26,157 bases of DNA, from NCBI GenBank assembly GCA_945927915.1, contig CAMEMX010000002.1, positions 1 to 26,157 on the forward strand, given 5' to 3'. This document shows positions 11,499 to 26,036 of the stretch, piece by piece. The stretch comes from an uncultured Clostridia bacterium. GTDB lineage: Bacteria > Bacillota > Clostridia > Oscillospirales > Oscillospiraceae. Position 1 is the first letter of the stretch; every line of letters begins with the position of its first letter. A model generated the notes under the pieces. It had not been told where the DNA came from. It saw nothing but the letters and a program-made list of their open reading frames with translations, and did not search any database. The position numbers and the translations under genes are program-made.

Positions 11499-13975
11499 AG
11501 CTCTCCTTTTCCACGAACCATTGGGGCGACAACAGCCTCAGCCGCTGTCTTGACATCGCCGCGACTTACGGCTTTTCCGGCGTCGAGCTGCACAGTCTGG
11601 ACGATCTCGGCGGCGAGACGCCCGCCGCGGTCTATCACCGCCTCATTGCGCTTGGCCTGAAGATCCCCTGCATCGACCTGTGCGCCGACATCGGCGTTGC
11701 CGCGCAGAAGGACGCGGCGCTCGCGGAGCTGAAGCGGGTCATTCCCGCCATGCAGCGCCTGCGCGTTGCGTATCTTCGCCTGCGCGCTGCGGCAAACGAT
11801 AACGCCGTCGCCGCAGCGGAGGACTTTTTGCGTCAGGCCGTGCCGCTGGCTGAGCGCGGCGGCATTGTCCTGCTCATCGAGACGGCGGGCGCGTTTGCCG
11901 ACACCGCAGCGCTGCGCGGCGTGCTTGGCCTCTTTGCCTCCGACGCGCTGGGCGCGCTGTGGGATCTGCACTACCCCTACCACGTCTGCGGCGAAAGCCC
12001 GGAGGACACCATCCGCAACCTCGGTGCCTATGTGCGCCATGTGCACATCAAGGACTCGACCGACGCGGGCACCTACTGCCTCGTCGGCGAGGGCGCGCTG
12101 CCGCTCGACGAGTTCATGGGTGCGCTGCGCTCGGTCAACTACGACGGCTTCGTCAGCCTTGAGTGGGACCCCGCGTGGGCGGCGGAATACGCCGACATGG
12201 ACTTGATTCTGACCCATTTTGTCAGCTATATGTCCCGTTATTCGACGCTCTCGCGGGCGCAGGCGAGCCTGTACCGCAGCCGCAGCGGCGCGGGCAAATA
12301 CGTCTGGAAAAAGGACGCGCTGATCGAGAAGACCTTCTCGCAGGTGCTTGACACCATGGTGCGGGAATTCCCCGACCAGTACGCCATCAAATACACCACC
12401 CTCGACTACACCCGCACCTACGCGCAGTTCCGCGACGACGTGGACACCTTCGCCCGCGCCCTGATCGACATGGGCGTCCGCGCCGGCAGCCATGTGGCGG
12501 TCTGGGCGACGAACATCCCGCAGTGGTACATCGCCTTCTGGGCGGTGACGAAGCTCGGCGGCGTCCTGGTCACGATGAACACCGCCTACAAGATCCACGA
12601 GGCAGAATACCTCCTGCGCCAGTCCGACACGCACACCCTCGTGATGGTCAGCGGCTACCGCGACTCCGACTATGCCTCGATCATCTCGGAGCTTTGCCCG
12701 GAGCTTGCGGACAACCGCACGGGCGAGCCGCTGCACAGCAAGCGTCTGCCCTTCCTGCGCAACGTCATCACCGTCGGCTTTGCCATGAAGGGCGCGATGA
12801 CCTGGGAGCAGGCCGTCAGCCGCAGCTCGAAGGTGCCGGTCGAGGAGGTGCAGCGCATGGCAGCCGCCGTCGACGTCCATGACGTTTGCAATATGCAGTA
12901 CACCTCCGGCACGACGGGCTTCCCCAAGGGCGTCATGCTGACGCATTACAATATCGTCAACAACGGCAAGTGCATCGGCGACCGCATGGACCTGTCCACC
13001 GCCGACCGCATGATGATCCAGGTGCCGATGTTCCACTGCTTCGGCATGGTTTTGGCTATGACTGCCTCGATGACCCACGGCGCGACGATCCTGCCGCTGC
13101 CCTACTTTTCCCCGAAGCCCGCCCTCGCGTGTATCCATCAGGAGCACATCACGGCCTTCCACGGCGTTCCGACGATGTTCATCGCCATGCTGGAGCATCC
13201 CGATTTTGAAAAGACCGACTTTTCCTATATGCGCACGGGCATCATGGCCGGTTCGCCCTGCCCGATCTCCGTCATGCAGGATGTGGTCGAGAAGATGCAT
13301 ATGCGCGAGATCACCATCGTCTACGGTCAGACCGAGGCTTCGCCCGGCTGCACGATGAGCAGCACGGATGATCCCATTGAGGTGCGTGTTTCCACCGTCG
13401 GCCGCGCCCTGCCGGAGATCGAGTGCAAGATCGTCGACCCGGAGACGGGCGAGGACTGCCCGGACAACGTGACGGGCGAATTCGTCGCACGCGGCTATAA
13501 CATCATGAAGGGCTATTACAAGATGCCCCGCGCCACCGCTGCCGCCATCGACAAGGACGGCTGGCTGCACACGGGCGACCTTGCCTGCCGCACTCCGGAG
13601 GGCAACTACCGCATCACCGGCCGCCTCAAGGACATGATCATCCGCGGCGGCGAGAACATCTACCCCAAGGAGATCGAGGAATTCATCTACACCCACCCGA
13701 AGGTCAGCGACGTGCAGGTCATCGGCGTGCCGGACGAGCAGTACGGCGAGGAGATCATGGCCTGCATCATCCTCAAGGAGGGCGAGACGATGACCGCCGA
13801 TGAGATGAAGACCTACATCCGTGACCACATGGCAAAGCACAAGGTGCCGCGCTATGTCGATTTCGTCGAGTCCTTCCCGATGAACGTCGCGGGCAAGATC
13901 CTCAAATACAAGATGCGCGAGGACGCCATCGAGAAGCTCGGCCTGCAAAAGGCCAATGCCATCGAAACGGCGTAA
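11495..13975 (+). CDS. Fusion of xylose-isomerase-like TIM barrel and AMP-dependent acyl-CoA ligase
   Basis: This 826-residue protein joins two enzyme families. Residues 1 to about 255 are a sugar-phosphate isomerase/epimerase (AP endonuclease 2) barrel with its acidic and His metal residues in place: GVELHS, LIETAG, WDLHYPYH, HVHIKDS and SLEWDP. Residues about 265-820 are an adenylate-forming ligase with the P-loop YTSGTTGFPKG (about 469-479), YGQTEASPG (about 610), LHTGD (about 691), GRLKDMIIRGGENIYP and the C-terminal catalytic Lys in AGKILKYK (about 799-806). The ligase part resembles fatty-acyl-CoA synthetases and would make acyl-AMP, then acyl-CoA. The frame is continuous with no ribosome site at the join, so the fusion looks real. 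It is coupled to the LeuA-like gene and is followed directly by the first T-box promoter. The acid and barrel substrates are unknown. Confidence 0.8.
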   Translation: MKLSFSTNHWGDNSLSRCLDIAATYGFSGVELHSLDDLGGETPAAVYHRLIALGLKIPCIDLCADIGVAAQKDAALAELKRVIPAMQRLRVAYLRLRAAANDNAVAAAEDFLRQAVPLAERGGIVLLIETAGAFADTAALRGVLGLFASDALGALWDLHYPYHVCGESPEDTIRNLGAYVRHVHIKDSTDAGTYCLVGEGALPLDEFMGALRSVNYDGFVSLEWDPAWAAEYADMDLILTHFVSYMSRYSTLSRAQASLYRSRSGAGKYVWKKDALIEKTFSQVLDTMVREFPDQYAIKYTTLDYTRTYAQFRDDVDTFARALIDMGVRAGSHVAVWATNIPQWYIAFWAVTKLGGVLVTMNTAYKIHEAEYLLRQSDTHTLVMVSGYRDSDYASIISELCPELADNRTGEPLHSKRLPFLRNVITVGFAMKGAMTWEQAVSRSSKVPVEEVQRMAAAVDVHDVCNMQYTSGTTGFPKGVMLTHYNIVNNGKCIGDRMDLSTADRMMIQVPMFHCFGMVLAMTASMTHGATILPLPYFSPKPALACIHQEHITAFHGVPTMFIAMLEHPDFEKTDFSYMRTGIMAGSPCPISVMQDVVEKMHMREITIVYGQTEASPGCTMSSTDDPIEVRVSTVGRALPEIECKIVDPETGEDCPDNVTGEFVARGYNIMKGYYKMPRATAAAIDKDGWLHTGDLACRTPEGNYRITGRLKDMIIRGGENIYPKEIEEFIYTHPKVSDVQVIGVPDEQYGEEIMACIILKEGETMTADEMKTYIRDHMAKHKVPRYVDFVESFPMNVAGKILKYKMREDAIEKLGLQKANAIETA

Positions 13976-13985
13976 AAAGAAATAC

Positions 13986-14014
13986 TTGACAAATTCCGCA
14001 GGCGGTGTTATCAT
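13986..14014 (+). promoter_or_regulatory. Promoter of T-box module 1
   Basis: A perfect TTGACA (13986-13991) lies 17 bases before TATCAT (14009-14014), starting only 10 bases after the preceding stop codon. The predicted RNA start is near 14021, just ahead of the T-box stem I. The box sequences and spacing match those of module 2. Confidence 0.88.
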
Positions 14015-14036
14015 ATGGACAATTCCATACACCAAA

Positions 14037-14303
14037 GGCTATGACGAAGACGGCATAGATCCTTTCCGTCCCAGAGAGCCGGCGTTGCTGCGAAGCCGGT
14101 ACGCGAAAGATCTGCTTTTGCCCATCCCTTCCGAGCCGGAGATCCGAGAATATGCGCAGGCAGAAGGTAGGCGTCTCCCGTCACTGCCACGTCACGGCAA
14201 GGGGCTTGTCAGAGCCATGAGGGGCACGAAAGTGCAATTTGAGTGGTACCGCGGGTAATGTATTTTTCCCGTCTCAAAGCGAACGCTTTGGGACGGGTTT
14301 TTT
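14037..14303 (+). promoter_or_regulatory. T-box leader 1 (specifier uncertain, tentatively AUC, Ile)
   Basis: The T-box core TGAGTGGTACCGCGG is at 14240-14254, where it can pair with the NCCA end of an uncharged tRNA, and a terminator follows. Stem I is visible: base GGCT (14037-14040) with AGCC (14134-14137), the K-turn ATGA, helix GAAG (14046-14049) with CTTC (14128-14131), AGATC with GATCT, and the AG-bulge/distal loop CAGAGAGCCGG to GCTGCGAAGCC. Counting from the lower helix as in leader 2 puts AUC at 14124-14126 in the specifier position. However, the base after it is C rather than the usual purine, and the S-turn is not recognisable. The T-box call is firm and the amino acid is not. Confidence 0.93.
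14268..14303 (+). terminator. T-box 1 attenuator terminator
   Basis: CCCGTCTCAAAGC (14268-14280) pairs with GCTTTGGGACGGG (14285-14297) around a GAAC loop and is followed by six T residues. It is the default-off state of the leader; uncharged tRNA binding would favour the competing antiterminator formed with the T-box core. Confidence 0.92.
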
Positions 14304-14332
14304 ATGCAAGAAACAGAAAAGAGGGCTTGACT

Positions 14333-16600
14333 ATGCAGACAGCGACATACGATTCCACCATCACCGCCATCGCAGAACGTATCCGGGATATGCGCGAGAT
14401 CGCGGGCTTCTCCGTCGAGGAGATGGCCCAGCGGACGGACACCACGCCGGAGCAGTACGCCGCCTACGAAAACGGCGACTGCGATTTCCCCTTCTCCTTC
14501 CTCCATAAATGCTCCATCGTCTTCGGCATTGACACCACGGCGATTTTGGAGGGCCGGACGGCGAAGCTCTCGTCCTACACCGTCACGCGCAGCGGCGAGG
14601 GGCAGGTCATGGTGCAGGAGGGCGGCATCGAGATCCGCAACCTCGCGCCGCGCTTCCGCGACAAGATCGCGGAGCCGCACCTCGTCCGCTACGGCTACCG
14701 CGCCGAGCAGCAGAATCTGCCCATCCACACGAACACCCACTCCGGGCAGGAATTTGACTACATCATCAGCGGCAAGCTCAAGGTGCAGGTCGGCAAGCAC
14801 ACCGAGATCCTCGGCCCCGGCGACTCGATCTACTATAACAGCTCCACGCCGCACGGCATGATCGCCGTCGACGGCGAGGATTGCCTCTTCTGCGCCATCG
14901 TCCTGCCCGGCGAGGACATGGAGCCGGAATCCGTCAGCCAGAGCATCGCCGTCGCCCGGTCGAGCCAGCGACTGCTGTGCGAAAAGTTCGTCAAATGCAC
15001 CGAAAATGAGAAGGGCGAGCTGCAGGCCATCCGCTTTGAGAACGAGGACAGCTACAATTTCGCCTTCGACACCGTCGACGCGCTGGCTGACGCCTACCCC
15101 GACAAGCTCGCCATGCTCCATCTGGACAAAAACAAGGTCGAGCGGCGCTTCACCTTCCGCGACATCAAGCGCGCCTCCAACCAGACGGCGAATTACTTCC
15201 GCTCCCTCGGCATCCAAAAGGGCGACCGCGTGATGCTGGTGCTCAAGCGGCACTACCAGTTCTGGTTCTCCATGCTCGCCCTGCACAAGCTCGGCGCCAT
15301 CGCCATCCCCGCGACCAACCAGCTTCTGGCGCACGACTTCGTTTACCGTTTCCAGTCCGCCGGCGTCAGCGCCATCGTCGCCACGGCGGACGGCGCAGTC
15401 GCGGAATCCGTCGAGGAGGCCGCCAAGACCTGCCCGGAGCTGAAAACGAAGATTTTGGTCGGCGGCAAGCGCGAGAGCTGGCGCTGCTTCGACGAGGAAT
15501 ACGCCCTCTTCACCGGCAAATTCGAGCGCACAGCCGACACCCCCTGCGGCGCGGACATCTCCACCATGTTCTTCACCTCCGGCACGACGGGCTATCCCAA
15601 GATCGCCGCGCACAGCTACAAATACGCCCTCGGCCACTATATCACGGCAAAATACTGGCACTGTGTCGAGCGTGACGGCCTGCACCTGACCATTTCCGAC
15701 ACCGGCTGGGGCAAGGCGCTCTGGGGCAAGTTCTACGGGCAATGGATGGCTGAGGGCGCGGTCTTCACCTATGACTTTGACCGCTTCGACGCGCATGACA
15801 TCCTGCCGCTGTTCGCCAAGTACCATATCACCACGTTCTGCGCACCTCCGACCATGCTGCGTATGTTCATCAAGGAGAACCTCTCGGACTACGACCTCAG
15901 CTCCGTCCACCACATGACCACCGCGGGCGAGGCGCTCAATCCCGAGGTCTTCCGCCAGATCAAGAAGGCGACCGGCCTGACCGTCATGGAGGGCTACGGT
16001 CAGACGGAGACGACCCTCACCATCGCCACCCTGCCCGGCACGCCGAGCCGTCCCGGCTCGATGGGCAAGCCCTCGCCGCTGTATGACATCGACCTTGTCG
16101 ATGCCGACGGCAACAGCGTCCCCGACGGCGAGGTCGGCGAGATCGTCGTCCGCACCGACAAGACCGTCCCCTGCGGCCTGTTCAGCGGCTACTACCGCGA
16201 CCCCGAACGCACCGCCGAGGTCTGGCATGACGGCCTTTACCACACCGGCGACACCGCATGGCGCGACGAGGACGGCTATTTCTGGTATGTCGGCCGCGTG
16301 GACGACGTCATCAAGTCCTCCGGCTACCGCATCGGGCCGTTCGAGATCGAGAACGTCATCATGGAGCTGCCGTATGTGCTCGAATGCGGCGTCTCTGCCG
16401 CGCCGGACGAGCTGCGCGGTCAGGTCGTCAAGGCGAGCATCGTGCTGACCAAGGGCACGCAGCCCAGCGAAGCGCTCAAGAAAGAGATCCAGAACTACGT
16501 CAAGGCGCATACCGCGCCGTACAAATACCCGCGCATCGTCGTATTCCGCGACGAGCTGCCCAAGACGATCTCCGGCAAGATCCAGCGAAACAAGCTGTAA
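14333..16600 (+). CDS. HTH(XRE)-cupin-acyl-CoA ligase fusion, copy 1
   Basis: This 755-residue protein has three parts in one frame. An XRE-type helix-turn-helix (about 8-66) includes RIRDMREIAGFSVEEMAQRT and PEQYAAYENG. A cupin (about 128-185) has HTNTHSGQEFDYIISGKL and STPHGM with metal-ligand-like His and Glu. An AMP-dependent ligase (about 220-755) follows, resembling medium-chain or aromatic acyl-CoA synthetases: FFTSGTTGYPK (about 413), YGQTETT (about 555), YHTGD (about 636), KSSGYRIGPFEIE and the catalytic Lys in SGKIQRNKL at the very end. It would activate a carboxylic acid to its CoA ester. HTH-cupin pairs are normally regulators binding a small ligand, so self-sensing or DNA binding is an inference. 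The ATG at 14333 has AGAGGG upstream; the longer frame would read back through the terminator. T-box control implies induction by amino acid shortage. Confidence 0.87.
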   Translation: MQTATYDSTITAIAERIRDMREIAGFSVEEMAQRTDTTPEQYAAYENGDCDFPFSFLHKCSIVFGIDTTAILEGRTAKLSSYTVTRSGEGQVMVQEGGIEIRNLAPRFRDKIAEPHLVRYGYRAEQQNLPIHTNTHSGQEFDYIISGKLKVQVGKHTEILGPGDSIYYNSSTPHGMIAVDGEDCLFCAIVLPGEDMEPESVSQSIAVARSSQRLLCEKFVKCTENEKGELQAIRFENEDSYNFAFDTVDALADAYPDKLAMLHLDKNKVERRFTFRDIKRASNQTANYFRSLGIQKGDRVMLVLKRHYQFWFSMLALHKLGAIAIPATNQLLAHDFVYRFQSAGVSAIVATADGAVAESVEEAAKTCPELKTKILVGGKRESWRCFDEEYALFTGKFERTADTPCGADISTMFFTSGTTGYPKIAAHSYKYALGHYITAKYWHCVERDGLHLTISDTGWGKALWGKFYGQWMAEGAVFTYDFDRFDAHDILPLFAKYHITTFCAPPTMLRMFIKENLSDYDLSSVHHMTTAGEALNPEVFRQIKKATGLTVMEGYGQTETTLTIATLPGTPSRPGSMGKPSPLYDIDLVDADGNSVPDGEVGEIVVRTDKTVPCGLFSGYYRDPERTAEVWHDGLYHTGDTAWRDEDGYFWYVGRVDDVIKSSGYRIGPFEIENVIMELPYVLECGVSAAPDELRGQVVKASIVLTKGTQPSEALKKEIQNYVKAHTAPYKYPRIVVFRDELPKTISGKIQRNKL

Positions 16601-16619
16601 AGAATCGCAAAAGTTTTCA

Positions 16620-16648
16620 TTGACAATCCGAGACGGCTATGGTATCAT
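16620..16648 (+). promoter_or_regulatory. Promoter of T-box module 2 and the VOR operon
   Basis: TTGACA (16620-16625) and TATCAT (16643-16648) are 17 bases apart with TATGG before the -10. It lies 20 bases after the stop of ligase copy 1, and no terminator separates them, so RNA from module 1 could also enter leader 2. Confidence 0.88.
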
Positions 16649-16667
16649 GGTTAAAAATTCATACAAA

Positions 16668-16915
16668 AACGATGACGGAGAGTGTCGCGGAGCCGTTTTT
16701 TTCAGAGAATCGGCGGTTGGTGTGAGCCGATAAGAAGCGTCCGCAGACTGTAGCTCCTGAGTTGGAAAGAAGAAAGCGTTTTGCAAGTAGACCTTTCCCG
16801 TGATTGCTGCGTAAAGGCATAATGCTTGTCAGAGCATGAGGGGCACGAAAGTGCAATTTGAGTGGTACCGCGGGATCCTACCCGTCTCAAAGAATATTCT
16901 TTGAGACGGGTTTTT
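16668..16915 (+). promoter_or_regulatory. T-box leader 2 (specifier probably GUA, Val)
   Basis: The T-box core TGAGTGGTACCGCGG is at 16859-16873, followed by a strong terminator. Stem I reads well: base AAC (16668-16670) with GTT (16761-16763), K-turn ATGA against TGA, helix GGAG (16677-16680) with CTCC (16754-16757), the S-turn-like AGTG (16681-16684), upper helix GCGGA (16687-16691) with TCCGC (16740-16744), AG bulge CAGAGAATCGGC and distal loop GGTTGGTGTGAGCC. The codon that sits one purine before the lower helix is GUA (16750-16752, followed by G), which would match a valine tRNA. This was read by hand without folding. Control should extend to the ATPase, ferredoxin, VOR, amidase and aminotransferase genes, since no later promoter or terminator was seen. 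Confidence 0.93.
16881..16915 (+). terminator. T-box 2 attenuator terminator
   Basis: CCCGTCTCAAAGAA (16881-16894) pairs perfectly with TTCTTTGAGACGGG (16897-16910), followed by five T residues. The lower half of the stem is identical to the terminator of leader 1, as expected of duplicated modules. Confidence 0.92.
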
Positions 16916-16954
16916 GCATTTCCGCGTAAAATGCCCGAAAGAGGAGAAACGCCA

Positions 16955-19240
16955 ATGAAATCGACAACCGGACTAAAGCTCACCATTCAGGACATGGCCA
17001 AGCGTATCCGCGATCTGCGCGAGATCGAGGGCTACACCGTCAGTGAAATGGCAAAGAAAACAGGCCTGACGCCGGAGGAATACGCAAGCTGCGAGGCCGG
17101 CGAAAGCGACCTCAGCTTTGCCTTTCTCTACCGCTGCGCACTGGAATTCGGCGTCGATGTCACCGACCTGATCCAGGGCTCCAGTCCGACGCTCTCGACC
17201 TACACGCTCACGCGCAAGGGCGAGGGCCAGCGCATCGAGGAGGCGCACGGCCTGACCTATTACAACATGGCTGCCTCCTACCGCAACCGTATCGCCGAGC
17301 CGCTGTACGTCGTCTCGGCCTACTCCGCCGAGCGTGAGCACAGCGAGATCGAGCTGACCACGCACGAGGGGCAGGAATGCGACCTCGTCGTGCGCGGCAA
17401 GATGAAAATTCAGATCGGCAACCACATTGAGATCCTCTCCGAGGGCGATTCGATCTACTACGATTCCTCCACGCCGCACGGCATGATCGCCGTCGACGGG
17501 CAGGACTGCGTGTTCTACGCCATCGTGCTGAACCCCTCCGGCGAAAGCGAAAAGCCGAAGCAGGAGCATTTCTCCGACGACGTCCGCGCCACGCAGCACG
17601 ACACCAAGGCGCGGCTTTATCAGGATTACATCATCGCCGATGAGGACGAGAAGGGCGCGCTGCGCTCCATCGCGTTCCGGAACACCGAGCGGTTCAACTT
17701 CGCCTACGACATTCTGGACAGGCTCGCGGACGCGCAGCCGAACAAGCTCGCCATGCTCCACCTCTCCGCCGACCGCACGGAGCGCCGCTTCACCTTCCGC
17801 GACATCAAGCAGGCGTCCAACCGCGCCGCGAACTTCTTCCGCTCTCTCGGCATCAAAAAGGGCGACCGCGTGATGCTGGTGCTCAAGCGGCACTACCAGT
17901 TCTGGTTCGCCATGATGGGCCTGAACAAGCTCGGCGCCATCGCCATTCCCGCCACCTGCCAGCTCAAAGCCCATGATTTCGAGTACCGTTTCCGGGCGGC
18001 GGGCGTCTCGGCCATCCTCTGCACCGCCGACGGCGATGTCGCCAGAGAGGTCGAGCAGGGCGCGGTGAACTGCCCGGAGCTGAAAACAAAGATCCTCGTC
18101 GGCGGACAGCGCGAGGGCTGGCACGACTTCGACGCGGAATTTTCCATGTTCTCCAGCCACTTCGACCGCACCGGGGACACCGCCTGCGGCGACGACCTCA
18201 TGCTGATGTTCTTCACCTCCGGCACGACAGGCTATCCCAAGATCGCCGCACACAGCTACAAATACCCGCTCGGTCACTTCATCACCGCAAAATACTGGCA
18301 TCAGGTCGACCCCGACGGCCTGCACCTGACCATCTCGGACACCGGCTGGGCAAAGGCGATGTGGGGCAAGCTCTACGGTCAGTGGCTCTGCGAGGGCGCC
18401 GTCTTCGTCTATGACTTTGACCGCTTTGACGCGGCGGACATCCTGCCGCTGTTTGCAAAATACCAGATCACGACCTTCTGTGCCCCGCCCACGATCTACC
18501 GCATGATGATCAAGCAGGACATCGCAAAATACGACTTTTCCAGCGTCAAGCACGCGACCATCGCCGGAGAAGCCCTCAACCCGGAGGTCTTCCGCCAGTT
18601 TGAAAAGGCCACCGGCCTGCGCGTGATGGAGGGCTTCGGTCAGTCCGAGACGACCCTCGTCATCGGCAACACCGTCGGCATGAAGCACCGCCTCGGCTCG
18701 ATGGGCAAGCCCGTGCCGCTGTATGACGTCGAGCTGCTCAGCCCGGACGGCAAGAGCGTCCCGACCGGCGAGACCGGCGAGATCTGCATCAGCACCAAGG
18801 ACGGTCTGCCCTGCGGCCTGTTCGTCGAATACTACCGCGACGCGGAAAAAACGCGCGAATGCAACCACGACGGCTGGTATCACACAGGCGACCTCGCGTG
18901 GAAGGACGAAGAGGGCTTCTACTGGTACGTCGGTCGCGCCGACGACGTCATCAAGTCCTCCGGCTACCGCATCGGGCCGTTCGAGATCGAGAACGTCATC
19001 ATGGAGCTGCCGTATGTGCTCGAATGCGGCGTATCCTCCGCGCCGGACGAGGTGCGCGGTCAGATCGTCAAGGCGAGTATCGTCCTGACCAAGGGCACGC
19101 AGCCGAGCGAGGCGCTCAAGAAGGAAATTCAGGACTACGTCAAGGCGCACACCGCGCCGTACAAATACCCGCGCATCGTCGTGTTCTGCGACGAGCTGCC
19201 CAAGACGGTCAGCGGGAAGATCCAGAGGAACAAATTATAA
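16955..19240 (+). CDS. HTH(XRE)-cupin-acyl-CoA ligase fusion, copy 2
   Basis: This 761-residue paralog of the preceding gene has the same three-domain order. The HTH (about 10-68) has RIRDLREIEGYTVSEMAKKT. The cupin (about 128-185) has TTHEGQECDLVVRGKMKIQ and STPHGMIAVDG. The ligase has FFTSGTTGYPK (about 419), GFGQSETT (about 560), YHTGDLAWKDEEGFYWY and the final SGKIQRNKL. Differences cluster in the HTH and cupin, in the segment linking cupin to ligase, and in the acid-binding region around 540-600 (FCAPPTIYRMMIKQD against FCAPPTMLRMFIKEN), consistent with a different preferred acid. The ATG at 16955 has GAGGAG at 16941-16946 with 8 bases between. The stop overlaps the next start as TAATG, so this ligase is coupled to the VOR operon. 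Confidence 0.87.
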   Translation: MKSTTGLKLTIQDMAKRIRDLREIEGYTVSEMAKKTGLTPEEYASCEAGESDLSFAFLYRCALEFGVDVTDLIQGSSPTLSTYTLTRKGEGQRIEEAHGLTYYNMAASYRNRIAEPLYVVSAYSAEREHSEIELTTHEGQECDLVVRGKMKIQIGNHIEILSEGDSIYYDSSTPHGMIAVDGQDCVFYAIVLNPSGESEKPKQEHFSDDVRATQHDTKARLYQDYIIADEDEKGALRSIAFRNTERFNFAYDILDRLADAQPNKLAMLHLSADRTERRFTFRDIKQASNRAANFFRSLGIKKGDRVMLVLKRHYQFWFAMMGLNKLGAIAIPATCQLKAHDFEYRFRAAGVSAILCTADGDVAREVEQGAVNCPELKTKILVGGQREGWHDFDAEFSMFSSHFDRTGDTACGDDLMLMFFTSGTTGYPKIAAHSYKYPLGHFITAKYWHQVDPDGLHLTISDTGWAKAMWGKLYGQWLCEGAVFVYDFDRFDAADILPLFAKYQITTFCAPPTIYRMMIKQDIAKYDFSSVKHATIAGEALNPEVFRQFEKATGLRVMEGFGQSETTLVIGNTVGMKHRLGSMGKPVPLYDVELLSPDGKSVPTGETGEICISTKDGLPCGLFVEYYRDAEKTRECNHDGWYHTGDLAWKDEEGFYWYVGRADDVIKSSGYRIGPFEIENVIMELPYVLECGVSSAPDEVRGQIVKASIVLTKGTQPSEALKKEIQDYVKAHTAPYKYPRIVVFCDELPKTVSGKIQRNKL

Positions 19241-19917
19241 TGAATGACAGCTTAACCCACCGCCGCGTCACGCTGTTCGCGGGGCACTACGGCAGCGGAA
19301 AAACCAACATCGCGGTCAACTGGGCGCTCGCCCTGCGCAAAACGGGCGCGCCCGTGACCATCGTCGATCTCGACATCGTCAATCCGTATTTTCGCACCAA
19401 GGACAGCAAGCAAGAGCTGGACACAGCCGGCGTGGAGCTGATCTCCTCGCCCTACGCCAACTCCAACGTCGACTTCCCCGCCCTGCCGCAGGAGATCTAC
19501 GGCGCGGTCGAGCGGCGCGACCGTCTGGCGGTTCTGGACATCGGCGGCGACGACCGCGGCGCCCTCGCCCTCGGCCGTTACGCGCCCTACATTTTAGAGG
19601 AAAACGACTTCGAGATGCTGTTCGTCGCCAACTGCTTCCGTCCGCTCACGCGCACACCGCAGGAGGCTTTCGAGGTTCTGCGCGAGATTGAAGCGGCAGG
19701 CGGCATCCCGTTTACCGGCATCGTCAACAACTCCAACCTCGGAAACGACACGACAGCCGACGACATCCTCGCCGCGCAGGACTACGCTGCCGCGCTCTGT
19801 GCGCTCAGCGGACTTCCCCTGCGGCTGAGCACCGTCAAGGAAACACTCATACCGCAGCTTACAGGGCGCGTTCCGAGCCTGTTCCCGCTGCGGCTGCAAG
19901 CGAAATACTACGAATAA
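19240..19917 (+). CDS. P-loop ATPase of the MinD/ParA-like (SIMIBI) type in the VOR operon
   Basis: This 225-residue protein has Walker A GHYGSGKT at 15-22, DLDIVNPYF at 43-51 in the position of the second Asp-rich motif, and LDIGGDDRG near 100-108 as the switch-II/Walker B segment. These are features of deviant MinD/ParA/NifH-related NTPases, but the specific role is not recognised. The first Lys of the true deviant Walker motif (KGG) is absent. The start ATG shares one base with the ligase stop. Its position directly before a ferredoxin and an iron-sulfur oxidoreductase suggests a maturation or activation partner, perhaps for cluster loading, but that is inference from context only. Confidence 0.75.
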   Translation: MNDSLTHRRVTLFAGHYGSGKTNIAVNWALALRKTGAPVTIVDLDIVNPYFRTKDSKQELDTAGVELISSPYANSNVDFPALPQEIYGAVERRDRLAVLDIGGDDRGALALGRYAPYILEENDFEMLFVANCFRPLTRTPQEAFEVLREIEAAGGIPFTGIVNNSNLGNDTTADDILAAQDYAAALCALSGLPLRLSTVKETLIPQLTGRVPSLFPLRLQAKYYE

Positions 19918-19929
19918 AGGAGCGTTGTT

Positions 19930-20136
19930 ATGGCAAAGATCACCTTCTCCACCGACCTTTGCAAGGGCTGCGGCCTGTGCGTCGCCGCCTGTCCCAAGGG
20001 TCTGATCGTTCTTGCGAAGGGCAAGCTCAACAAAAAGGGACACGCCCCCGCCGAGATCACCGACCAAGCGGCCTGCATCGGCTGCGCGTTCTGCGCAACG
20101 ATGTGTCCCGATTGCGTCATCACCGTAGAAAAATAG
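19930..20136 (+). CDS. vorD: 2x[4Fe-4S] ferredoxin-like delta subunit of the 2-oxoacid oxidoreductase
   Basis: This 68-residue protein has two complete CxxCxxCxxxC motifs, CKGCGLCVAACP (11-22) and CIGCAFCATMCP (49-60), typical of the bacterial two-cluster ferredoxin fold. In VOR and KOR complexes this delta subunit takes electrons from the TPP site and passes them to free ferredoxin. The ATG follows AAAGGAG closely and lies 12 bases after the ATPase gene and 16 before vorB. The order delta-alpha-beta-gamma is standard for both VOR and KOR, so the symbol depends on the alpha subunit call. Confidence 0.85.
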   Translation: MAKITFSTDLCKGCGLCVAACPKGLIVLAKGKLNKKGHAPAEITDQAACIGCAFCATMCPDCVITVEK

Positions 20137-20152
20137 AAAGGACGGGAACGCT

Positions 20153-21214
20153 ATGGCAGATAAGGTACTTATGAAAGGCAACGAAGCCCTGGCCGAAGCC
20201 GCGATCCAGGCAGGCTGCCGCCACTACTTCGGCTACCCGATCACACCGCAGACGGAGGTCGCGGCATACATGGCGAAGCGGATGCCGAAGATCGGCGGCT
20301 GCTTCCTGCAGGCCGAAAGCGAGATCGCCGCGATCAACATGGTCTACGGCGTCGCCTCGGCGGGCAAGCGCGTGATGACCTCCTCCTCCAGTCCCGGAAT
20401 CTCCCTGAAGGAGGAAGGCATTTCCTACCTTGCGGGCGCGGACCTGCCCGCATTTATCGTCAACGTCCAGCGCGGCGGCCCCGGCCTCGGCGGCATTCAG
20501 CCGTCGCAGTCGGACTATTTCCAGTCCACGCGCGGCGGCGGTCACGGCGATTATCACATCATCGTCCTCGCGCCGTCGTCCGTGCAGGAGATGGCCGACC
20601 TCACGGTCAAGGGCTTTGACCTCGCGGACGAATACCGTATGCCCGCCATGGTGCTGGCTGACGGCACGATGGGCCAGATGATGGAGCCTGTCACCATGGG
20701 CAGCTACCAGCCCAAAACCGTTGAAAAACCGTGGGCGGTCACGGGCACGAGAATGCAGCGTCCGCACAACATTGTCAACTCGCTCTACCTCAACCCTGAG
20801 GAGCTGGAACGCACGAATTTTGAGCGATACGCCCGCTATGCCGTCATCGAGCAGAAGGAGGCCATGTACGAAGCCTTCCTGATGGACGACGCGGACATCT
20901 GCGTGACCGCGTTCGGCATCGCGTCGAGAGTGTCGCGCAACGCCGTCCTCGCCGCAAGAGCCGAGGGCATCAAGGTCGGTATGCTCCGTCCCATCACGCT
21001 CTGGCCGTTCCCCAAGGCGCCGTTTGCCGAGGCCGCCGACCGCGTCAGCGCGTTCATCTCCGTCGAGCTGTCGATGGGCCAGATGATCGAGGACGTCGAG
21101 CTTGCCACGCGCTGCAAGCGTCCGGTCTACCTGTGCAACCGCACGGGCGGCATGATCCCCTCGCCGGAGCAGGTGCTCGCAAAAATCAAAGAGATTGCGG
21201 GAGGTTTGAAATGA
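20153..21214 (+). CDS. vorB: 2-oxoacid:ferredoxin oxidoreductase alpha subunit, VorB type
   Basis: This 353-residue protein is the pyrimidine-binding plus transketolase C-terminal subunit of a 2-oxoisovalerate (branched-chain 2-oxoacid) oxidoreductase. Recognisable segments are KVLMKGNEALAEAAIQAGC, YFGYPITPQTEVA (25-37), SSSSPGISLKEEGISYLAGA (near 80-99), NVQRGGPGLGGIQPSQSDYF and GHGDYHIIVLAPSSVQEM. The reaction links a 2-oxoacid, CoA and ferredoxin with acyl-CoA, CO2 and reduced ferredoxin, and it is reversible. VorB identity is by recall of family sequences; a 2-oxoglutarate enzyme (KorA) is the main alternative, but the neighbouring branched-chain aminotransferase favours VOR. The stop overlaps the vorA start (ATGA). 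Confidence 0.87.
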   Translation: MADKVLMKGNEALAEAAIQAGCRHYFGYPITPQTEVAAYMAKRMPKIGGCFLQAESEIAAINMVYGVASAGKRVMTSSSSPGISLKEEGISYLAGADLPAFIVNVQRGGPGLGGIQPSQSDYFQSTRGGGHGDYHIIVLAPSSVQEMADLTVKGFDLADEYRMPAMVLADGTMGQMMEPVTMGSYQPKTVEKPWAVTGTRMQRPHNIVNSLYLNPEELERTNFERYARYAVIEQKEAMYEAFLMDDADICVTAFGIASRVSRNAVLAARAEGIKVGMLRPITLWPFPKAPFAEAADRVSAFISVELSMGQMIEDVELATRCKRPVYLCNRTGGMIPSPEQVLAKIKEIAGGLK

Positions 21215-21963
21215 AAACTGTCTTTCAGAAGCCGAAAGCCCTGACGGATGCGCCGCTGCACTACTGCCCCGGCTGCACCCACGGCATCATTCACCGCCTC
21301 GTCGCCGAGGCGATCGACGCGCTCGGCATTGAGGGCAATACCGTCGGCGTCGCACCCGTCGGCTGCGCGGTCATGGCTTACGATTATTTCTCCTGCGACA
21401 TGGTCGAAGCCGCCCACGGCAGAGCGCCCGCCGTTGCCACCGGCTTGAAGCGCGCCATGCCGGAAAACATCATCTTCACCTATCAGGGCGACGGCGACCT
21501 TGCCTCCATCGGCATGGCGGAGACCGTCCACGCCGCCACCCGCAATGAGAATATCACCGTCATTTTCGTCAACAACGCCATTTACGGCATGACGGGCGGT
21601 CAGATGGCGCCGACCTCCCTGCCCGGTCAGGTCACGCAGACCTCGCCCTACGGCAGAGACGTCAAGCACTGCGGCTACCCCGTGAAGGTCTGCGAGATGC
21701 TTGCACAGCTCGAAGGCCCGGAATATCTGGCGCGTGTTGCGGTCAACAACGTCAAAAACGTCCTGAGCGCAAAGAAAGCCATCCAAAAGGCGTTTGAAAA
21801 CCAGATCGCGGGCAAGGGATTCTCCCTCGTCGAGGTGATCTCGGCCTGCCCGACCAACTGGGGCATGACCCCGCAGAAGGCGCTGGAGTGGATCGACGAG
21901 AAGATGATCCCCTACTATCCCCTCGGCGTCTACAAGGACAGAAGTAAGGAGGCGGGCGTATGA
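21211..21963 (+). CDS. vorA: 2-oxoacid:ferredoxin oxidoreductase beta subunit, TPP-binding
   Basis: This 250-residue TPP-binding subunit carries YCPGCTHGIIHRL (about 18-30) and the TPP/Mg motif GDGDLASIGMAE (about 93-104), followed by NNAIYGMTGGQMAPTS, which is near-universal in KorB/VorA proteins. The frame is open further upstream, but ATG 21211 is chosen because it follows GGGAGG (21199-21204), overlaps the vorB stop by 4 bases and begins where homology begins. It binds thiamine diphosphate at the interface with the alpha subunit. The short 3' end overlaps the gamma-subunit start by 4 bases, giving a tightly coupled complex operon. Confidence 0.9.
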   Translation: MKTVFQKPKALTDAPLHYCPGCTHGIIHRLVAEAIDALGIEGNTVGVAPVGCAVMAYDYFSCDMVEAAHGRAPAVATGLKRAMPENIIFTYQGDGDLASIGMAETVHAATRNENITVIFVNNAIYGMTGGQMAPTSLPGQVTQTSPYGRDVKHCGYPVKVCEMLAQLEGPEYLARVAVNNVKNVLSAKKAIQKAFENQIAGKGFSLVEVISACPTNWGMTPQKALEWIDEKMIPYYPLGVYKDRSKEAGV

Positions 21964-22499
21964 GCGCAGTACAGATCGTGATCGCGGGCTTCGGCGGACA
22001 GGGCATCCTGTTCGCGGGCAAATTTCTCGCCTACAAGGGTCTGCTGGAGGAGCAGAACGTGAGCTGGCTCCCCTCCTACGGCCCGGAGATGCGCGGCGGC
22101 ACGGCGAATTGCAGCGTCATCCTCAGCGACAGCGCCATCGGCTCGCCCATCGTCACGCACCCGGACGTGCTGATGGTGATGAACCTGCCCTCGCTGGACA
22201 AATTTGAGGACGCGGTCGTTCCCGGCGGCAAGATCTTCGTCGACTCCACGCTGATCGAGCGCAAGGTCAAGCGTACCGACGTCGAGGTGCATTACGTCCC
22301 CGCCACGCAGATGGCAACGGACGCCGGCATCCCAACACTGGCCAATATGCTGCTCACGGGCAAGCTGATGAAGGAGGTCCCCGCCCTGTGCGGCGGCGAC
22401 TGGGAGGCGGCGCTGAAAAAGGTCGTTTCCGCACGCCATCAGGAGCTGCTGGCCTACAATCTCAAGGCGCTGCAGACGGGCGCCGCGTTCGAGGGCTGA
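21960..22499 (+). CDS. vorC: 2-oxoacid:ferredoxin oxidoreductase gamma subunit
   Basis: This 179-residue protein is typical of the gamma (POR_N-type) subunit: IVIAGFGGQGILFAGKFLA at about 6-24, then YGPEMRGGTANCSVILSD at about 40-57, both strongly conserved in the family. This subunit completes the oxidoreductase and contacts CoA in related enzymes. It overlaps vorA by 4 bases and is followed by the amidase gene after 3 bases. With delta, alpha and beta it forms a full four-subunit enzyme. Gamma subunits of VOR and KOR are hard to tell apart, so the substrate assignment rests on vorB and on context. Confidence 0.88.
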   Translation: MSAVQIVIAGFGGQGILFAGKFLAYKGLLEEQNVSWLPSYGPEMRGGTANCSVILSDSAIGSPIVTHPDVLMVMNLPSLDKFEDAVVPGGKIFVDSTLIERKVKRTDVEVHYVPATQMATDAGIPTLANMLLTGKLMKEVPALCGGDWEAALKKVVSARHQELLAYNLKALQTGAAFEG

Positions 22500-22502
22500 G
22501 CC

Positions 22503-23291
22503 ATGCGCGTGAGCTGTATCCAGATGGACATGGTCTTCGCCGCACCGCAGGAGAATTTTGCCCGCGCCGAAGCGCTCGTGCGTCAGGCAGTGCTGAATGA
22601 GAAGCCCGACACCGTCGTGCTGCCCGAGACGTGGAACACGGGCTTTTTCCCGCGGGAAAGCCTCGCGCAGTACGCCGACGAAGACGGAGTGCATACGAAA
22701 GCCCTGTTTTCCGCGCTGGCAAAGGAGCTGAACGTCAACATCGTCGCCGGCAGCGTGGCAAACCGGAAGCGCGGCGGCATCTATAACACCGCCTATGTTT
22801 TCGACCGCACGGGCGCGTGCGTCGCGGAATACGACAAGACCCACCTGTTTTCCCCGATGGAGGAGGACAAGTTCTTCCAAAAGGGCGACCATCTGTGCCG
22901 CTTTACCCTCGACGGCGCGCAATGCGGCATCCTCATCTGCTACGACATCCGTTTCCCGGAGCTGACGCGGACGCTCACGGTCGAAGGGCTGGACATTTTG
23001 TTCCTCGTCTCCCAGTGGCCGAGGGTGCGTCTGCCGCACCTGCAGCTCCTGACGGCCGCCCGCGCGGTGGAGAATCAGATGTTCACCGTCTGCTGCAACT
23101 CCTGCGGCACGGCGGGCGAGACGGTCTACGGCGGCGGCTCCCAGCTCGTCGACCCGTGGGGCACAATCCTCGCCCGCGCTGAGGGCGCGCAGCAGCTTCT
23201 CACCGCTGACCTCGACCTCGGCATTTTGGACGGCATCCGCAATTCCATCCATGTTTTCCGGGACAGACGCCCCGAATTATACCGATACTAA
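22503..23291 (+). CDS. Nitrilase-superfamily amidase (omega-amidase / YafV-like)
   Basis: This 262-residue carbon-nitrogen hydrolase has the full Glu-Lys-Cys triad: E42 in LPETW, K112 in YDKTHLF and C146 in ICYDIRFPEL. The pattern resembles omega-amidases and YafV-type enzymes, which turn 2-oxoglutaramate or 2-oxosuccinamate into the oxoacid and ammonia after glutamine-linked transamination. In this operon it could pull a transaminase reaction forward, or release a carboxylic acid from an amide to feed the ligases; both are inference. The ATG lies 3 bases after vorC, and GAGGG at its end can serve as ribosome site. A biotinidase or N-carbamoyl hydrolase role cannot be excluded. Confidence 0.82.
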   Translation: MRVSCIQMDMVFAAPQENFARAEALVRQAVLNEKPDTVVLPETWNTGFFPRESLAQYADEDGVHTKALFSALAKELNVNIVAGSVANRKRGGIYNTAYVFDRTGACVAEYDKTHLFSPMEEDKFFQKGDHLCRFTLDGAQCGILICYDIRFPELTRTLTVEGLDILFLVSQWPRVRLPHLQLLTAARAVENQMFTVCCNSCGTAGETVYGGGSQLVDPWGTILARAEGAQQLLTADLDLGILDGIRNSIHVFRDRRPELYRY

Positions 23292-23311
23292 ACAGAAAAG
23301 AGGCTTTTTCT

Positions 23312-24391
23312 ATGAACTATACCTTCCCCGTGACCCGCACGACCCACCCGAAGCAGAAGCCCGATCCCGATCACCTGCACTTCGGGCAGGATTTCTCCGA
23401 CCATATGTTCATCATGGACTACGACGAGGGGCAGGGCTGGCATGACGGACGTGTCATCCCCTATGCACCGCTCGCCATCGACCCTGCCTCCTGCGTGCTG
23501 CACTACGCGCAGATGATCTTCGAGGGCATGAAGGCCTACAAGACGCCCGAGGGCAACATCCGCCTCTTCCGCCCGTATGAGAACGCCGCGCGCATCAACC
23601 GCTCCGGCGCGCGTATGTGCATTCCGCCCATCGACGAGGATCTGTTCGTCGCCGCGATCAAGGCGGTCGTCATGGCGGACGTGGACTGGGTTCCCGACCG
23701 TCCCGGCACGGCGCTGTATATCCGCCCGTTCATCATCGCGGACGAGGTCTCCTTCAGCGTCATGCCCTCGAAGCACTATCATTTCATCGTCATTCTCTGC
23801 CCCTCCGGCCCGTACTACGCAGGCGCGGACGGCAAGCTCGGCACGACGAAGATCTATGTCGAGGACGAATACATCCGCGCCGCGCACGGCGGCACGGGCT
23901 TTACCAAGTGCGGCGGCAACTACGCCGGCGGCATGAAGGCCTCCGAGAAGGCCGCCGCCGCCAACTGCCGCGACGTGCTGTGGCTGGACGCCGCCGAGCA
24001 TAAGTACGTCGAGGAGATCGGCACCTCCAACGCGTTCTTCCAGATCGGTGACGAGATCATCACCGCACCGCTTGCGGGCACCATCCTGCCCGGCATCACG
24101 CGCAACTCCGTCATCACCCTGCTGAAGGACTGGGGCTACAAGGTCACGGAGCGCAAGCTCGCCATCGACGAGGTCTATGCCGCCGCCGAGGCCGGCACGC
24201 TGGGCGAGATCTTCGCCACCGGTACCGCCGCCGTCATCTCCCCCATCGGCCTTCTGAGCTATAAGGGCAAGGAGATCATCATCAACAACAACGAGGTCGG
24301 CGCTTTGGAGCAGCGGCTCTACGACACCATCTACGGCATCCAGACCGGCACCGCCGACGACCCCCACGGCTGGGGCATGACCATCGGCTAA
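23312..24391 (+). CDS. ilvE: Branched-chain amino acid aminotransferase (class IV, long form)
   Basis: This PLP enzyme interconverts valine, leucine or isoleucine plus 2-oxoglutarate with the 2-oxoacids and glutamate. The 359-residue length and sequence match the long BCAT group: HYAQMIFEGMKAY (64-76), LFRPYENAARINRSGARM, YIRPFI (136-141), GGNYAGGMKAS with the PLP lysine at K209, EIGTSNAFF (near 235) and FATGTAAVISPIG (near 305). The ATG at 23312 follows AAAAGAGG. It is the last gene of the VOR operon, 20 bases after the amidase, and ends just before a strong terminator. Its presence is the best evidence that VOR here handles branched-chain oxoacids. Confidence 0.94.
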   Translation: MNYTFPVTRTTHPKQKPDPDHLHFGQDFSDHMFIMDYDEGQGWHDGRVIPYAPLAIDPASCVLHYAQMIFEGMKAYKTPEGNIRLFRPYENAARINRSGARMCIPPIDEDLFVAAIKAVVMADVDWVPDRPGTALYIRPFIIADEVSFSVMPSKHYHFIVILCPSGPYYAGADGKLGTTKIYVEDEYIRAAHGGTGFTKCGGNYAGGMKASEKAAAANCRDVLWLDAAEHKYVEEIGTSNAFFQIGDEIITAPLAGTILPGITRNSVITLLKDWGYKVTERKLAIDEVYAAAEAGTLGEIFATGTAAVISPIGLLSYKGKEIIINNNEVGALEQRLYDTIYGIQTGTADDPHGWGMTIG

Positions 24392-24400
24392 TATCACTTC

Positions 24401-24447
24401 AAAAAACCGTCGGCATCGGGAGACGTTCCCGATGCCGACGGTTTTTT
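24401..24447. terminator. Bidirectional terminator between ilvE and the convergent small gene
   Basis: AAAAAACCGTCGGCATCGGGA (24401-24421) pairs perfectly with 24427-24447 in a 21-bp stem around a 5-base loop, with six A residues on one side and six T on the other. It lies 9 bases after ilvE on the plus strand, and its edge touches the stop codon of the minus-strand gene, so it can end transcription from both directions. Confidence 0.92.
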
Positions 24448-24671: not shown

Positions 24672-26036
24672 CTATGCTCTCCGCTCCATAGGAACATACG
24701 GCGTCTGCTCCTTTACGCCGATGTAGGACGGGCGGATGATCTTACCCGCATTTTGAATTTCCTCGATGCGGTGCGCGCTCCAGCCGGCCATGCGCGCCAC
24801 GGCAAAGATCGGCGTGAACAGCTCGCACGGCAGGCCGAGAAGCTGATACACCAGACCGGAATAGAAGTCGACGTTCGCGCTGACGCCCTTGTACATCCTG
24901 CGCCGCTCTGCGATCACCACCGGCGCCATCTCCGCGACCGTCTCGTAAAGGGCAAATTCCTCTTCTCTTCCCTTCTCCGCCGCAAGCTCTCTGGCGCATT
25001 GGCGCAGGAGGTTCGCACGCGGGTCGGAGACGGAGTAGATCGCGTGACCCATGCCGTAGATCAGTCCCGCGCGGTCAAACGCCTGCTTGTCGAGCAGACG
25101 GACAAGATAGTCCTCCACCGCGCCCTTGTCCCCGGTGTTGACGTTCTGCTTCATGTCCTCAAACATCCGGACGACCTTGATGTTTGCGCCGCCGTGGCGC
25201 GGGCCCTTGAGTGAGCCGAGCGCTGCCGCGATCGCGGAATAGGTATCCGTGCCGGAGGAGGTGACGACGTGGGTCGTGAAGGTGGAGTTGTTACCGCCGC
25301 CGTGCTCTGCGTGCAGCACCAGGGCAAGATCGAGCACCTTTGCCTCCAGATGGGTGAATTTTCCGTCCTTGCGCAGGATGTGCAGGAGGTTTTCCGCCGT
25401 GGACATCGCGCTGTCCGGGTTGCGGATGTACAGGCTCCTGCCCAGGTGATAGTGGCAATACGCCTGATAGCCGTAGACCGCCAGCAGTGGGAACATGGCG
25501 ATGAGCTGCAGGCACTGGCGCAGGACGTTTTCGACCGTCACCGTGTCCGGGTCGTCATCGTAGGAATACAGCGCCAGCACGCTGCGCGAGAGGATGTTCA
25601 TCACGTCCTTGCTCGGCGCCTTGAGGATCATGTCGCGCGCAAACGACGGCGGCAGGCTGCGGTATTCTCCCAGCGCCGCGCGGAATTCCGCAAGCTCCTG
25701 CGCGTTCGGAAGGGCGGAAAAGAGCAGCAGATACGCGATCTCCTCAAATCCGGGGCGGTCGTCGCGCAAAAAGCCGGCGCAGAGCTCCTCAACGTCGATG
25801 CCACGATAATAGAGCTTGCCCGCGCAGGGACGCAGCGTGCCGTCGGGCAGCTTTTCCTTGGCGTGGATGGTCGAGATCTCCGTCAGGCCGGTGACGACGC
25901 CGTTGCCGTTGACGTCGCGCAGGCCGCGAAAGACCTTGTGCTCCCCGTACATCTCCGGCGTGATATGGTTGCGCGCGCTGGAGGTCGCGGCAAGGGCGCG
26001 GATATACGGCGTGATTTCCGAATAGGATCTCGGCAT
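24672..26036 (-). CDS. gltA: Citrate synthase
   Basis: It condenses acetyl-CoA with oxaloacetate to citrate, feeding 2-oxoglutarate and glutamate synthesis in an anaerobe with an incomplete cycle. The 454-residue protein has the family active-site segments: LHAEHGGGNNSTF (241-253), GPRHGGAN with H281, GMGHAIY with H331 and NVDFYSG with D390, corresponding to the catalytic His-His-Asp set. The N-terminal extension before LPDGTLRPCAGKLYYRGIDV is typical of the longer clostridial type. The ATG at 26036 has AAAGGAG just upstream, overlapping the end of the preceding gene. Glutamate made from this branch is the amino donor for the aminotransferase nearby, though the genes are on opposite strands. 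Confidence 0.94.
   Translation of the reverse strand: MPRSYSEITPYIRALAATSSARNHITPEMYGEHKVFRGLRDVNGNGVVTGLTEISTIHAKEKLPDGTLRPCAGKLYYRGIDVEELCAGFLRDDRPGFEEIAYLLLFSALPNAQELAEFRAALGEYRSLPPSFARDMILKAPSKDVMNILSRSVLALYSYDDDPDTVTVENVLRQCLQLIAMFPLLAVYGYQAYCHYHLGRSLYIRNPDSAMSTAENLLHILRKDGKFTHLEAKVLDLALVLHAEHGGGNNSTFTTHVVTSSGTDTYSAIAAALGSLKGPRHGGANIKVVRMFEDMKQNVNTGDKGAVEDYLVRLLDKQAFDRAGLIYGMGHAIYSVSDPRANLLRQCARELAAEKGREEEFALYETVAEMAPVVIAERRRMYKGVSANVDFYSGLVYQLLGLPCELFTPIFAVARMAGWSAHRIEEIQNAGKIIRPSYIGVKEQTPYVPMERRA

What the first reader, a model, noticed from the sequence alone, without database searches (positions are those of the whole stretch)
13986..24447. T-box-controlled route that appears to make branched-chain amino acids from scavenged short acids
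Seen: two T-box leaders, each in front of an acyl-CoA ligase gene. The second is continuous with ferredoxin, VorB, VorA and VorC subunits and a branched-chain aminotransferase, ending at one terminator. Known: T-boxes turn expression on when a tRNA is uncharged, and rumen anaerobes and methanogens can reductively carboxylate isobutyryl-, isovaleryl- or 2-methylbutyryl-CoA with ferredoxin-linked enzymes. Inference: ligase, then VOR run in reverse, then BCAT form a salvage pathway (branched acid to acyl-CoA to 2-oxoacid to amino acid), wired to the matching tRNA. VOR clusters are usually read as catabolic; the T-box argues the opposite here.
Basis: partly seen in the sequence, partly recalled or inferred. 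Interest (0 to 1): 0.85.

Follow-up and report, generated by a model that had tools for sequence, protein, structure and literature searches.

The report
tRNA-controlled amino-acid making from waste acids
An uncultured gut bacterium appears to make valine, isoleucine and probably leucine from short branched acids left by its neighbours, with RNA switches that turn the matching enzymes on when the matching tRNA runs empty.

Summary
Two T-box leaders precede two paralogous HTH-cupin-acyl-CoA ligases, with specifiers AUC (Ile) and GUA (Val). The second opens a tight operon: ligase, P-loop ATPase, ferredoxin, VorBAC, amidase-like gene, branched-chain aminotransferase, terminator. The arrangement recurs in rumen and hindgut Clostridia. 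All 53 ligases with an Ile specifier fall in one clade, all 67 distinct ones with a Val specifier in the other (19 unread); Val specifiers vary synonymously. Only one catalytic-domain position separates the groups (Gly/Ala), four residues before the acyl-pocket Trp of the 2-methylbutyrate enzyme MacsMa. ilvC is over cut-off in 4 of 50 genomes with these ligases; across 147 genomes of the order, ligase and ilvC are anticorrelated, also within families. In relatives it often has Leu T-boxes (17 read, all Leu; 3 unread); the window copy has none. Best reading: isobutyrate, 2-methylbutyrate and probably isovalerate are activated, reductively carboxylated by VOR and transaminated. The chemistry is known from 1960s-70s rumen work; genes and tRNA wiring were not found in my searches. 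Flux is untested.

The parts
10089..11498 (+). LeuA-like protein (HMGL-like + LeuA allosteric domain), predicted catalytically dead; no T-box found in front of it in the window
11495..13975 (+). fusion of a xylose-isomerase-like TIM barrel and a third AMP-forming acyl-CoA ligase (proposed isovalerate:CoA ligase)
13986..14014 (+). promoter-like site of transcription unit 1 (TTGACA-17-TATCAT)
14032..14279 (+). T-box leader 1, specifier AUC (Ile) at 14124-14126
14268..14297 (+). terminator hairpin of T-box 1
14333..16600 (+). ligase 1: HTH-cupin-AMP-forming acyl-CoA ligase, proposed 2-methylbutyrate:CoA ligase (Ile branch)
16620..16648 (+). promoter-like site of transcription unit 2
16663..16892 (+). 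T-box leader 2, specifier GUA (Val) at 16750-16752
16880..16911 (+). terminator hairpin of T-box 2
16955..19240 (+). ligase 2: HTH-cupin-AMP-forming acyl-CoA ligase, proposed isobutyrate:CoA ligase (Val branch)
19240..19917 (+). P-loop ATPase of unknown role, conserved between ligase 2 and ferredoxin
19930..20136 (+). ferredoxin / VOR delta-like subunit (4Fe-4S domains)
20153..21214 (+). VorB (NCBIfam PRK07119, 546 bits, cut-off 399)
21211..21963 (+). VorA, TPP-binding beta subunit
21960..22499 (+). VorC, gamma subunit
22503..23291 (+). carbon-nitrogen hydrolase (nitrilase/omega-amidase-like)
23312..24391 (+). branched-chain aminotransferase (ilvE type II, 377 bits, cut-off 250)
24401..24447 (+). 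terminator closing transcription unit 2

Best explanation
The region is a kit for making branched-chain amino acids from scavenged branched short-chain acids in place of the acetohydroxyacid (ilvBCD) pathway. AMP-forming ligases activate the acids: ligase 1 2-methylbutyrate, ligase 2 isobutyrate, the TIM-barrel/ligase fusion probably isovalerate. The ferredoxin-linked VOR adds CO2 reductively to give the 2-oxoacids, and BCAT transaminates them. Two T-boxes read the charging of tRNA-Ile (AUC) and tRNA-Val (GUA), so each ligase, and the shared VOR-BCAT operon behind the Val T-box, is transcribed through when its tRNA is uncharged. In many relatives the third module has a Leu T-box. Shown from sequence: gene order, T-boxes, specifiers, clade split, missing ilv genes. 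Inferred: substrates, direction of VOR, antitermination. The dead LeuA-like protein is guessed to be a leucine-binding feedback subunit.
For: T-boxes. Specifier read by one anchor in 115 of 116 leaders: ligase 1 45 of 46 AUC (in the 46th, L087, the first of two anchors was taken; the one at the usual distance is AUC), ligase 2 69 of 69 GUN (62 GUA, 6 GUC, 1 GUG). The same anchor gives GUC for the own genome's valS, GCC for alaS and ACC for thrS (these two recognised by eye). Tree: 53 of 53 Ile copies and 67 of 67 distinct Val copies in separate clades, 19 unread. One catalytic position separates them, G460/A466. Best solved relative 3ETC, which prefers 2-methylbutyrate; MbcS activates 2-methylbutyrate and isobutyrate. 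ilvC over cut-off in 4 of 50, ilvD 6 of 51, both over cut-off in 14 of 14 control genomes; order-wide ilvC in 8 of 52 with versus 61 of 95 without the ligase, Fisher p 7e-9, within-family OR 0.084. VorB in 49 of 51, third ligase in 49 of 51. Specifiers of T-boxes before the LeuA-like gene: 17 read, all Leu, 3 unread.
Against: No flux, expression or binding data. VOR is reversible and known as a catabolic enzyme. The own genome is 85.2% complete, so missing genes may be gaps; completeness of the 50 genomes is not given. 4 of 50 keep full ilvC and one a fragment; 34 of 95 genomes of the order without the ligase also lack ilvC, so lack of ilvC alone does not prove the pathway. The leuB cut-off is strict: over cut-off in only 9 of 14 controls, and 47 of 50 genomes have some leuB-like match. 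The window's Leu module has no T-box. VOR and BCAT sit behind the Val T-box only, so Ile starvation alone may not induce them. 14 of 45 loci with room have no VOR beside ligase 2. tRNA-Val and tRNA-Ile were not among the 8 tRNA matches found in the own genome. The anchor reads nothing in 4 of 7 other own-genome T-boxes (L002, L004, L005, L006).
Confidence: 0.82

Rival explanations
1. The ligases supply branched acyl-CoA for membrane fatty acids, as MbcS does in Staphylococcus aureus, and VOR/BCAT are neighbours that balance the same pool.
For: MbcS is the best-scoring NCBIfam model of both ligases, though at about half its cut-off (440 and 436 versus 850 bits); its proven role is branched fatty acid synthesis.
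Against: Control by uncharged tRNA-Ile/Val fits amino acids, not lipids; ligase 2 shares its operon with VOR and BCAT; 45 of 50 of these genomes show no ilvC over cut-off or fragment.
Confidence: 0.05
2. The operon is catabolic: BCAT and VOR oxidise Val/Ile/Leu to acyl-CoA and reduced ferredoxin, and the ligases work backwards or recapture acids.
Against: AMP-forming ligases are driven toward activation (recalled); a T-box switches on in starvation, the wrong sign for catabolism; ilvC and ilvD are over cut-off in few of the genomes.
Confidence: 0.05
3. Valine and isoleucine come from the acids as proposed, but leucine comes from an ordinary isopropylmalate pathway fed by VOR-made 2-oxoisovalerate, with the LeuA-like protein active.
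For: Leu T-boxes in front of a LeuA-like gene; leuB over cut-off in 8 of 50 genomes, among them G040, G042 and G045 without ilvC over cut-off; 47 of 50 genomes have a leuB-like match, two at 251 bits, and the cut-off misses 5 of 14 controls. I raised this from 0.06 to 0.08 after weighing that control.
Against: Of 28 LeuA-like sequences, none of the 27 that cover the region keeps the LRDGEQ Asp, and none of 28 keeps HxH.
Confidence: 0.08

Closest known systems
Reductive carboxylation of branched short-chain acids by rumen anaerobes and methanogens (Allison, Robinson, Bryant, Peel; cited in PMC7356843, PMC2812497)
   Same: Same precursors and products: isobutyrate to Val, 2-methylbutyrate to Ile, isovalerate to Leu.
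   Different: That work was isotope labelling (recalled; the originals were not held). I saw no gene cluster or tRNA control in the passages read. Here genes and regulation are assigned.
T-box riboswitches (RF00230; TBDB, PMC7778990)
   Same: Stem I with specifier, UGGN antiterminator, terminator hairpin.
   Different: The regulated genes are acyl-CoA ligases and a 2-oxoacid:ferredoxin oxidoreductase. The words acyl-CoA and oxidoreductase do not occur in the TBDB paper's main text.
MacsMa (PDB 3ETC) and S. aureus MbcS, branched short-chain acyl-CoA synthetases
   Same: Catalytic domain; 626.8 and 651.9 bits to 3ETC.
   Different: N-terminal HTH and cupin domains, two paralogues split by specifier, amino acid rather than lipid context.
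2-isopropylmalate synthase LeuA
   Same: HMGL fold and LeuA allosteric domain.
   Different: The Asp of LRDGEQ and both His of HxH are gone; that these bind the metal is recalled.

Membership tests
T-box leader RF00230 | covariance-model match | tested here: met
   98.1 bits (over gathering) for leader 2; 60 bits, E 2.9e-11, below gathering, for leader 1
T-box leader RF00230 | specifier fitting downstream function | tested here: met
   AUC and GUA, conserved; valS, alaS, thrS and proS controls agree
T-box leader RF00230 | read-through on uncharged tRNA | not testable with these tools
   -
T-box leader RF00230 | tRNA with matching anticodon and discriminator in the host | tested here: inconclusive
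   8 tRNA matches found in the incomplete genome, no Val or Ile among them
MbcS (NF047394) | score over curated cut-off | tested here: not met
   440.5 and 436.3 bits, cut-off 850: a relative, not a member
VOR, VorB subfamily PRK07119 | score over curated cut-off | tested here: met
   546.3 bits, cut-off 399
Branched-chain aminotransferase (ilvE_II) | score over curated cut-off | tested here: met
   377.4 bits, cut-off 250.05
LeuA, 2-isopropylmalate synthase | curated cut-off and metal ligands | tested here: not met
   252.2 bits, cut-off 598.7; Asp and HxH absent
Reductive carboxylation route to branched-chain amino acids | ligase + VOR + BCAT together with loss of ilvBCD | tested here: met
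   for the own genome (85.2% complete); for relatives
Reductive carboxylation route to branched-chain amino acids | label from branched acid in amino acid | not testable with these tools
   -

The most novel reading that the evidence does not exclude
A three-ligase, three-tRNA system replaces de novo branched-chain amino acid synthesis in many gut Clostridia. Each ligase is wired to its own tRNA (Ile, Val, Leu) and they share one VOR. A retired LeuA that lost catalysis but kept its leucine-binding domain acts as the leucine sensor on the third ligase, the HTH-cupin heads form a second sensing layer, and one Gly/Ala position sets C5 versus C4 acid.
Probability: 0.4. Interest if true: 0.92.

Novelty: new variant of a known kind. 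Interest (0 to 1): 0.82.

Why it matters
Branched short-chain acids have long been known as growth factors of rumen bacteria (cited in PMC7356843), but I found no assignment of the bacterial genes in my searches. This gives a gene set that can be looked for in any genome, a per-amino-acid prediction of acid use, and a direct test in cultured relatives. It shows T-boxes in front of acyl-CoA ligases and a ferredoxin-dependent carboxylase, and offers a candidate case of an enzyme retired into a sensor. It bears on isoacid feeding of livestock and on cross-feeding in the gut.

Tried and rejected
A T-box in front of the window's own LeuA-like gene was sought and not found. tRNA genes of the host could not settle the anticodon match. 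True LeuA for comparison was sought in four stretches of ilvC-bearing genomes and not found there; two PDB sequences served instead. A first specifier script misplaced 6 leaders (L042, L072, L077, L079, L080, L089) and failed on 3 (L017 ligase 1, L027, L056); an anchored script replaced it. In the tree, 8 Val rows were the same genes fetched twice; one search removed them (75 to 67) and left the result unchanged. I first took the discriminating position to lie beside Acs Trp414 from memory (note); the paper and the 3ETC numbering place it four residues before MacsMa Trp259. The catabolic and membrane-lipid readings were kept as rivals. Structure prediction was not run; its description lists no coordinates from which to measure distances. 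Two of three protein-database searches were not used; the one run scored a capped set of 7999 candidates and served only to see the domain layout.

Full report
What is there. The window is contig 2 of a 1.47 Mb, 209-contig genome, 85.2% complete. Rfam finds a T-box at 16663-16892 (98.1 bits, gathering 93) and, with a looser threshold, one at 14032-14279 (60 bits, below gathering, E 2.9e-11). Each is preceded by a TTGACA-17-TATCAT site and followed by a terminator hairpin. Behind them lie two paralogous ligases, 66% identical, each built of HTH, cupin and AMP-binding domains. The second continues without a gap over 20 bases through P-loop ATPase, ferredoxin, VorB, VorA, VorC, CN-hydrolase and BCAT to one strong terminator at 24401-24447. 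VorB and BCAT score over their curated cut-offs.

Specifiers. Reading three bases, then one base, then the 3' strand of the lower stem I, the Rfam alignments put GUA at the specifier place of leader 2 and AUC in leader 1; TBDB uses the same place, 2-4 bases before the end of the specifier bulge. An anchor without regard to gene type, but written after I had seen the leaders, reads ligase 1 as 45 of 46 AUC and ligase 2 as 69 of 69 GUN: 62 GUA, 6 GUC, 1 GUG; one truncated leader (L056) gave nothing. Eleven leaders had two or more anchors and the first was taken; for L087 ligase 1 that gave CGC, while the second, at the usual distance, is AUC. The third base of the Val specifiers varies only synonymously. 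Controls with the same anchor: valS GUC (valS by NCBIfam), alaS GCC and thrS ACC in the own genome and proS CCG in L015; alaS, thrS and proS were recognised by eye. Four other own-genome T-boxes (L002, L004, L005, L006) gave no anchor. The lower stem varies with pairing kept in ligase 2 leaders: 38 GAAG/CTTC, 14 GGAG/CTCC, 6 GAAA/TTTC and six others among 64 (pairing was part of how that script chose, so this leans toward the structure).

Gene tree. Of 147 rows, 8 were the same genes fetched twice, leaving 139 distinct ligases: 53 AUC, 67 GUN, 19 with no specifier assigned. All 53 AUC copies fall in one clade of 58 (SH-aLRT 100) and all GUN copies in the other 89 rows (quick method). Nine of the AUC copies come from genomes where ligase 2 had no VOR in its stretch, found afterwards. 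Nine alignment positions are at least 90% fixed and different between the groups; eight lie in the HTH-cupin part and one in the catalytic domain, Gly460 of ligase 1 (53 of 53) versus Ala466 of ligase 2 (67 of 67 distinct). In 3ETC that position is Gly. With the offset given by the YHTGD motif (431-435 in the paper, 454-458 in the chain) it is Gly255, four residues before Trp259, which the paper says occupies a position like that of the acyl-pocket Trp of Acs and is critical (PMC10455477, passages read). MacsMa prefers 2-methylbutyrate, which fits Gly for the Ile ligase. MbcS of S. aureus activates 2-methylbutyrate and isobutyrate, isovalerate poorly (PMC10026030, passages read).

Missing classical route. 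In the own genome ilvC gives only a 24-bit hit, ilvB none, ilvD none at E<=1e-30. Of 50 genomes behind the loci, ilvC is over cut-off in 4, with a fragment in a fifth and weak matches in 17 more. ilvD is over cut-off in 6 of 51, with three more near 500 bits (cut-off 618). ilvC, ilvD and ilvB are each over cut-off in 14 of 14 control genomes. leuB is over cut-off in 8 of 50, but 47 of 50 have some leuB-like match and the cut-off is reached in only 9 of 14 controls, so loss of leuB is not established. As a control, 147 genomes drawn from the order, the own one included, were searched for the ligase and for ilvC. Counting full-length matches of at least 53% identity, ilvC is in 8 of 52 genomes with and 61 of 95 without the ligase (Fisher p 7e-9); stratified by family, with 140 of 147 labelled, the odds ratio is 0.084, chi-square 17.3. 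The cut-off was mine; partial copies, as in G138 and G173, count as without; and 34 of the 95 lack both.

Conservation. Of 80 loci, 45 have at least 8 kb after ligase 2; 31 of these hold ligase 1 upstream and P-loop, ferredoxin and VorBAC downstream, 26 also BCAT within 8 kb. The other 14 have no VOR there. VorB is in 49 of 51 genomes at E<=1e-60, from 100% down to 56% identity for the best match, so some may be other VORs. Of the 18 genomes with no VOR beside ligase 2, 16 show at least two matches to ligase 1, the copy of ligase 2 included; in 9 of them a copy reads AUC, and second copies in others were not read.

The third module. Upstream in the window lie a LeuA-like gene (10089-11498) and a fusion of a TIM barrel with a third acyl-CoA ligase (11495-13975). 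A LeuA-like gene lies in the fetched stretch of 29 of 80 loci; in 27 of these the TIM-barrel/ligase fusion, or the start of it, follows, and in the other two (L016, L057) the stretch ends. The fusion is found in 49 of 51 genomes, one match each (these genomes were chosen for holding the first two ligases, so this has no negative control). T-boxes in front of the LeuA-like gene, counting one locus (L062) where the contig ends before the gene can be seen, read CUC in 15, CUU in 1 and CUG in 1; three more (L075, L081, L082) could not be read. In 10 of the 29 loci none was found, two of them cut at the start (L066, L086), and the window has none. None of the 27 LeuA-like sequences covering the region has the Asp of LRDGEQ, and none of 28 has the HxH pair, whereas the LeuA allosteric domain is strongly conserved; that these are the metal ligands is recalled. 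The likeliest reading is that the third ligase makes isovaleryl-CoA for leucine and the LeuA-like protein is a leucine-sensing leftover; this is inference.

Literature. PMC7356843 and PMC2812497 (passages) cite the older work on Val, Ile and Leu from branched acids; the two originals looked up were not held, and that it was labelling is recalled. Searches pairing T-box with 2-methylbutyrate (two papers, irrelevant by title) and T-box riboswitch with 2-ketoisovalerate ferredoxin oxidoreductase (none) found nothing. Wider ones showed no such regulation in the titles and abstracts listed, but searches list only 20 of 43, 20 of 78 and 40 of 1,179. Two T-box surveys, PMC3766115 and PMC2494555 (passages), do not have the words acyl-CoA or oxidoreductase in their main text; their supplements were not read, and two other surveys (Vitreschak 2008, Gutierrez-Preciado 2009) were not held. 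Novelty is therefore claimed only within these searches.

Odds.

Noticed in passing
window 19240-19917: A P-loop ATPase with only weak matches to MinD/ApbC-like families sits between ligase 2 and ferredoxin and is found after ligase 2 in 31 of 31 loci with VOR and room; role unknown.
   Followed up: partly
window 22503-23291: A carbon-nitrogen hydrolase between VorC and BCAT, also next to BCAT in L023, L030, L042, L066 and L070; could be an omega-amidase.
   Followed up: no
window 14333-14700 and 16955-17320: HTH and cupin heads of the ligases carry 8 of the 9 positions that separate the Ile and Val groups, hinting that they sense different ligands.
   Followed up: partly
L012 20939-21751, L055 20927-21733, L089 20996-21802: An amidohydrolase-like gene (recognised by eye) follows the third ligase where the Leu module stands behind BCAT.
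   Followed up: no
window 3582-7151: Pyruvate:ferredoxin oxidoreductase, 1714.7 bits.
   Followed up: no
window 24672-26036 (-): Citrate synthase, convergent with the operon.
   Followed up: no
window 8779-9963: Phosphodiester glycosidase (NAGPA) domain protein upstream of the LeuA-like gene.
   Followed up: no
window 11477-14035 (-) and 3501-7160 (-): Very long antisense ORFs opposite real genes, most likely an effect of G+C-rich codons.
   Followed up: no
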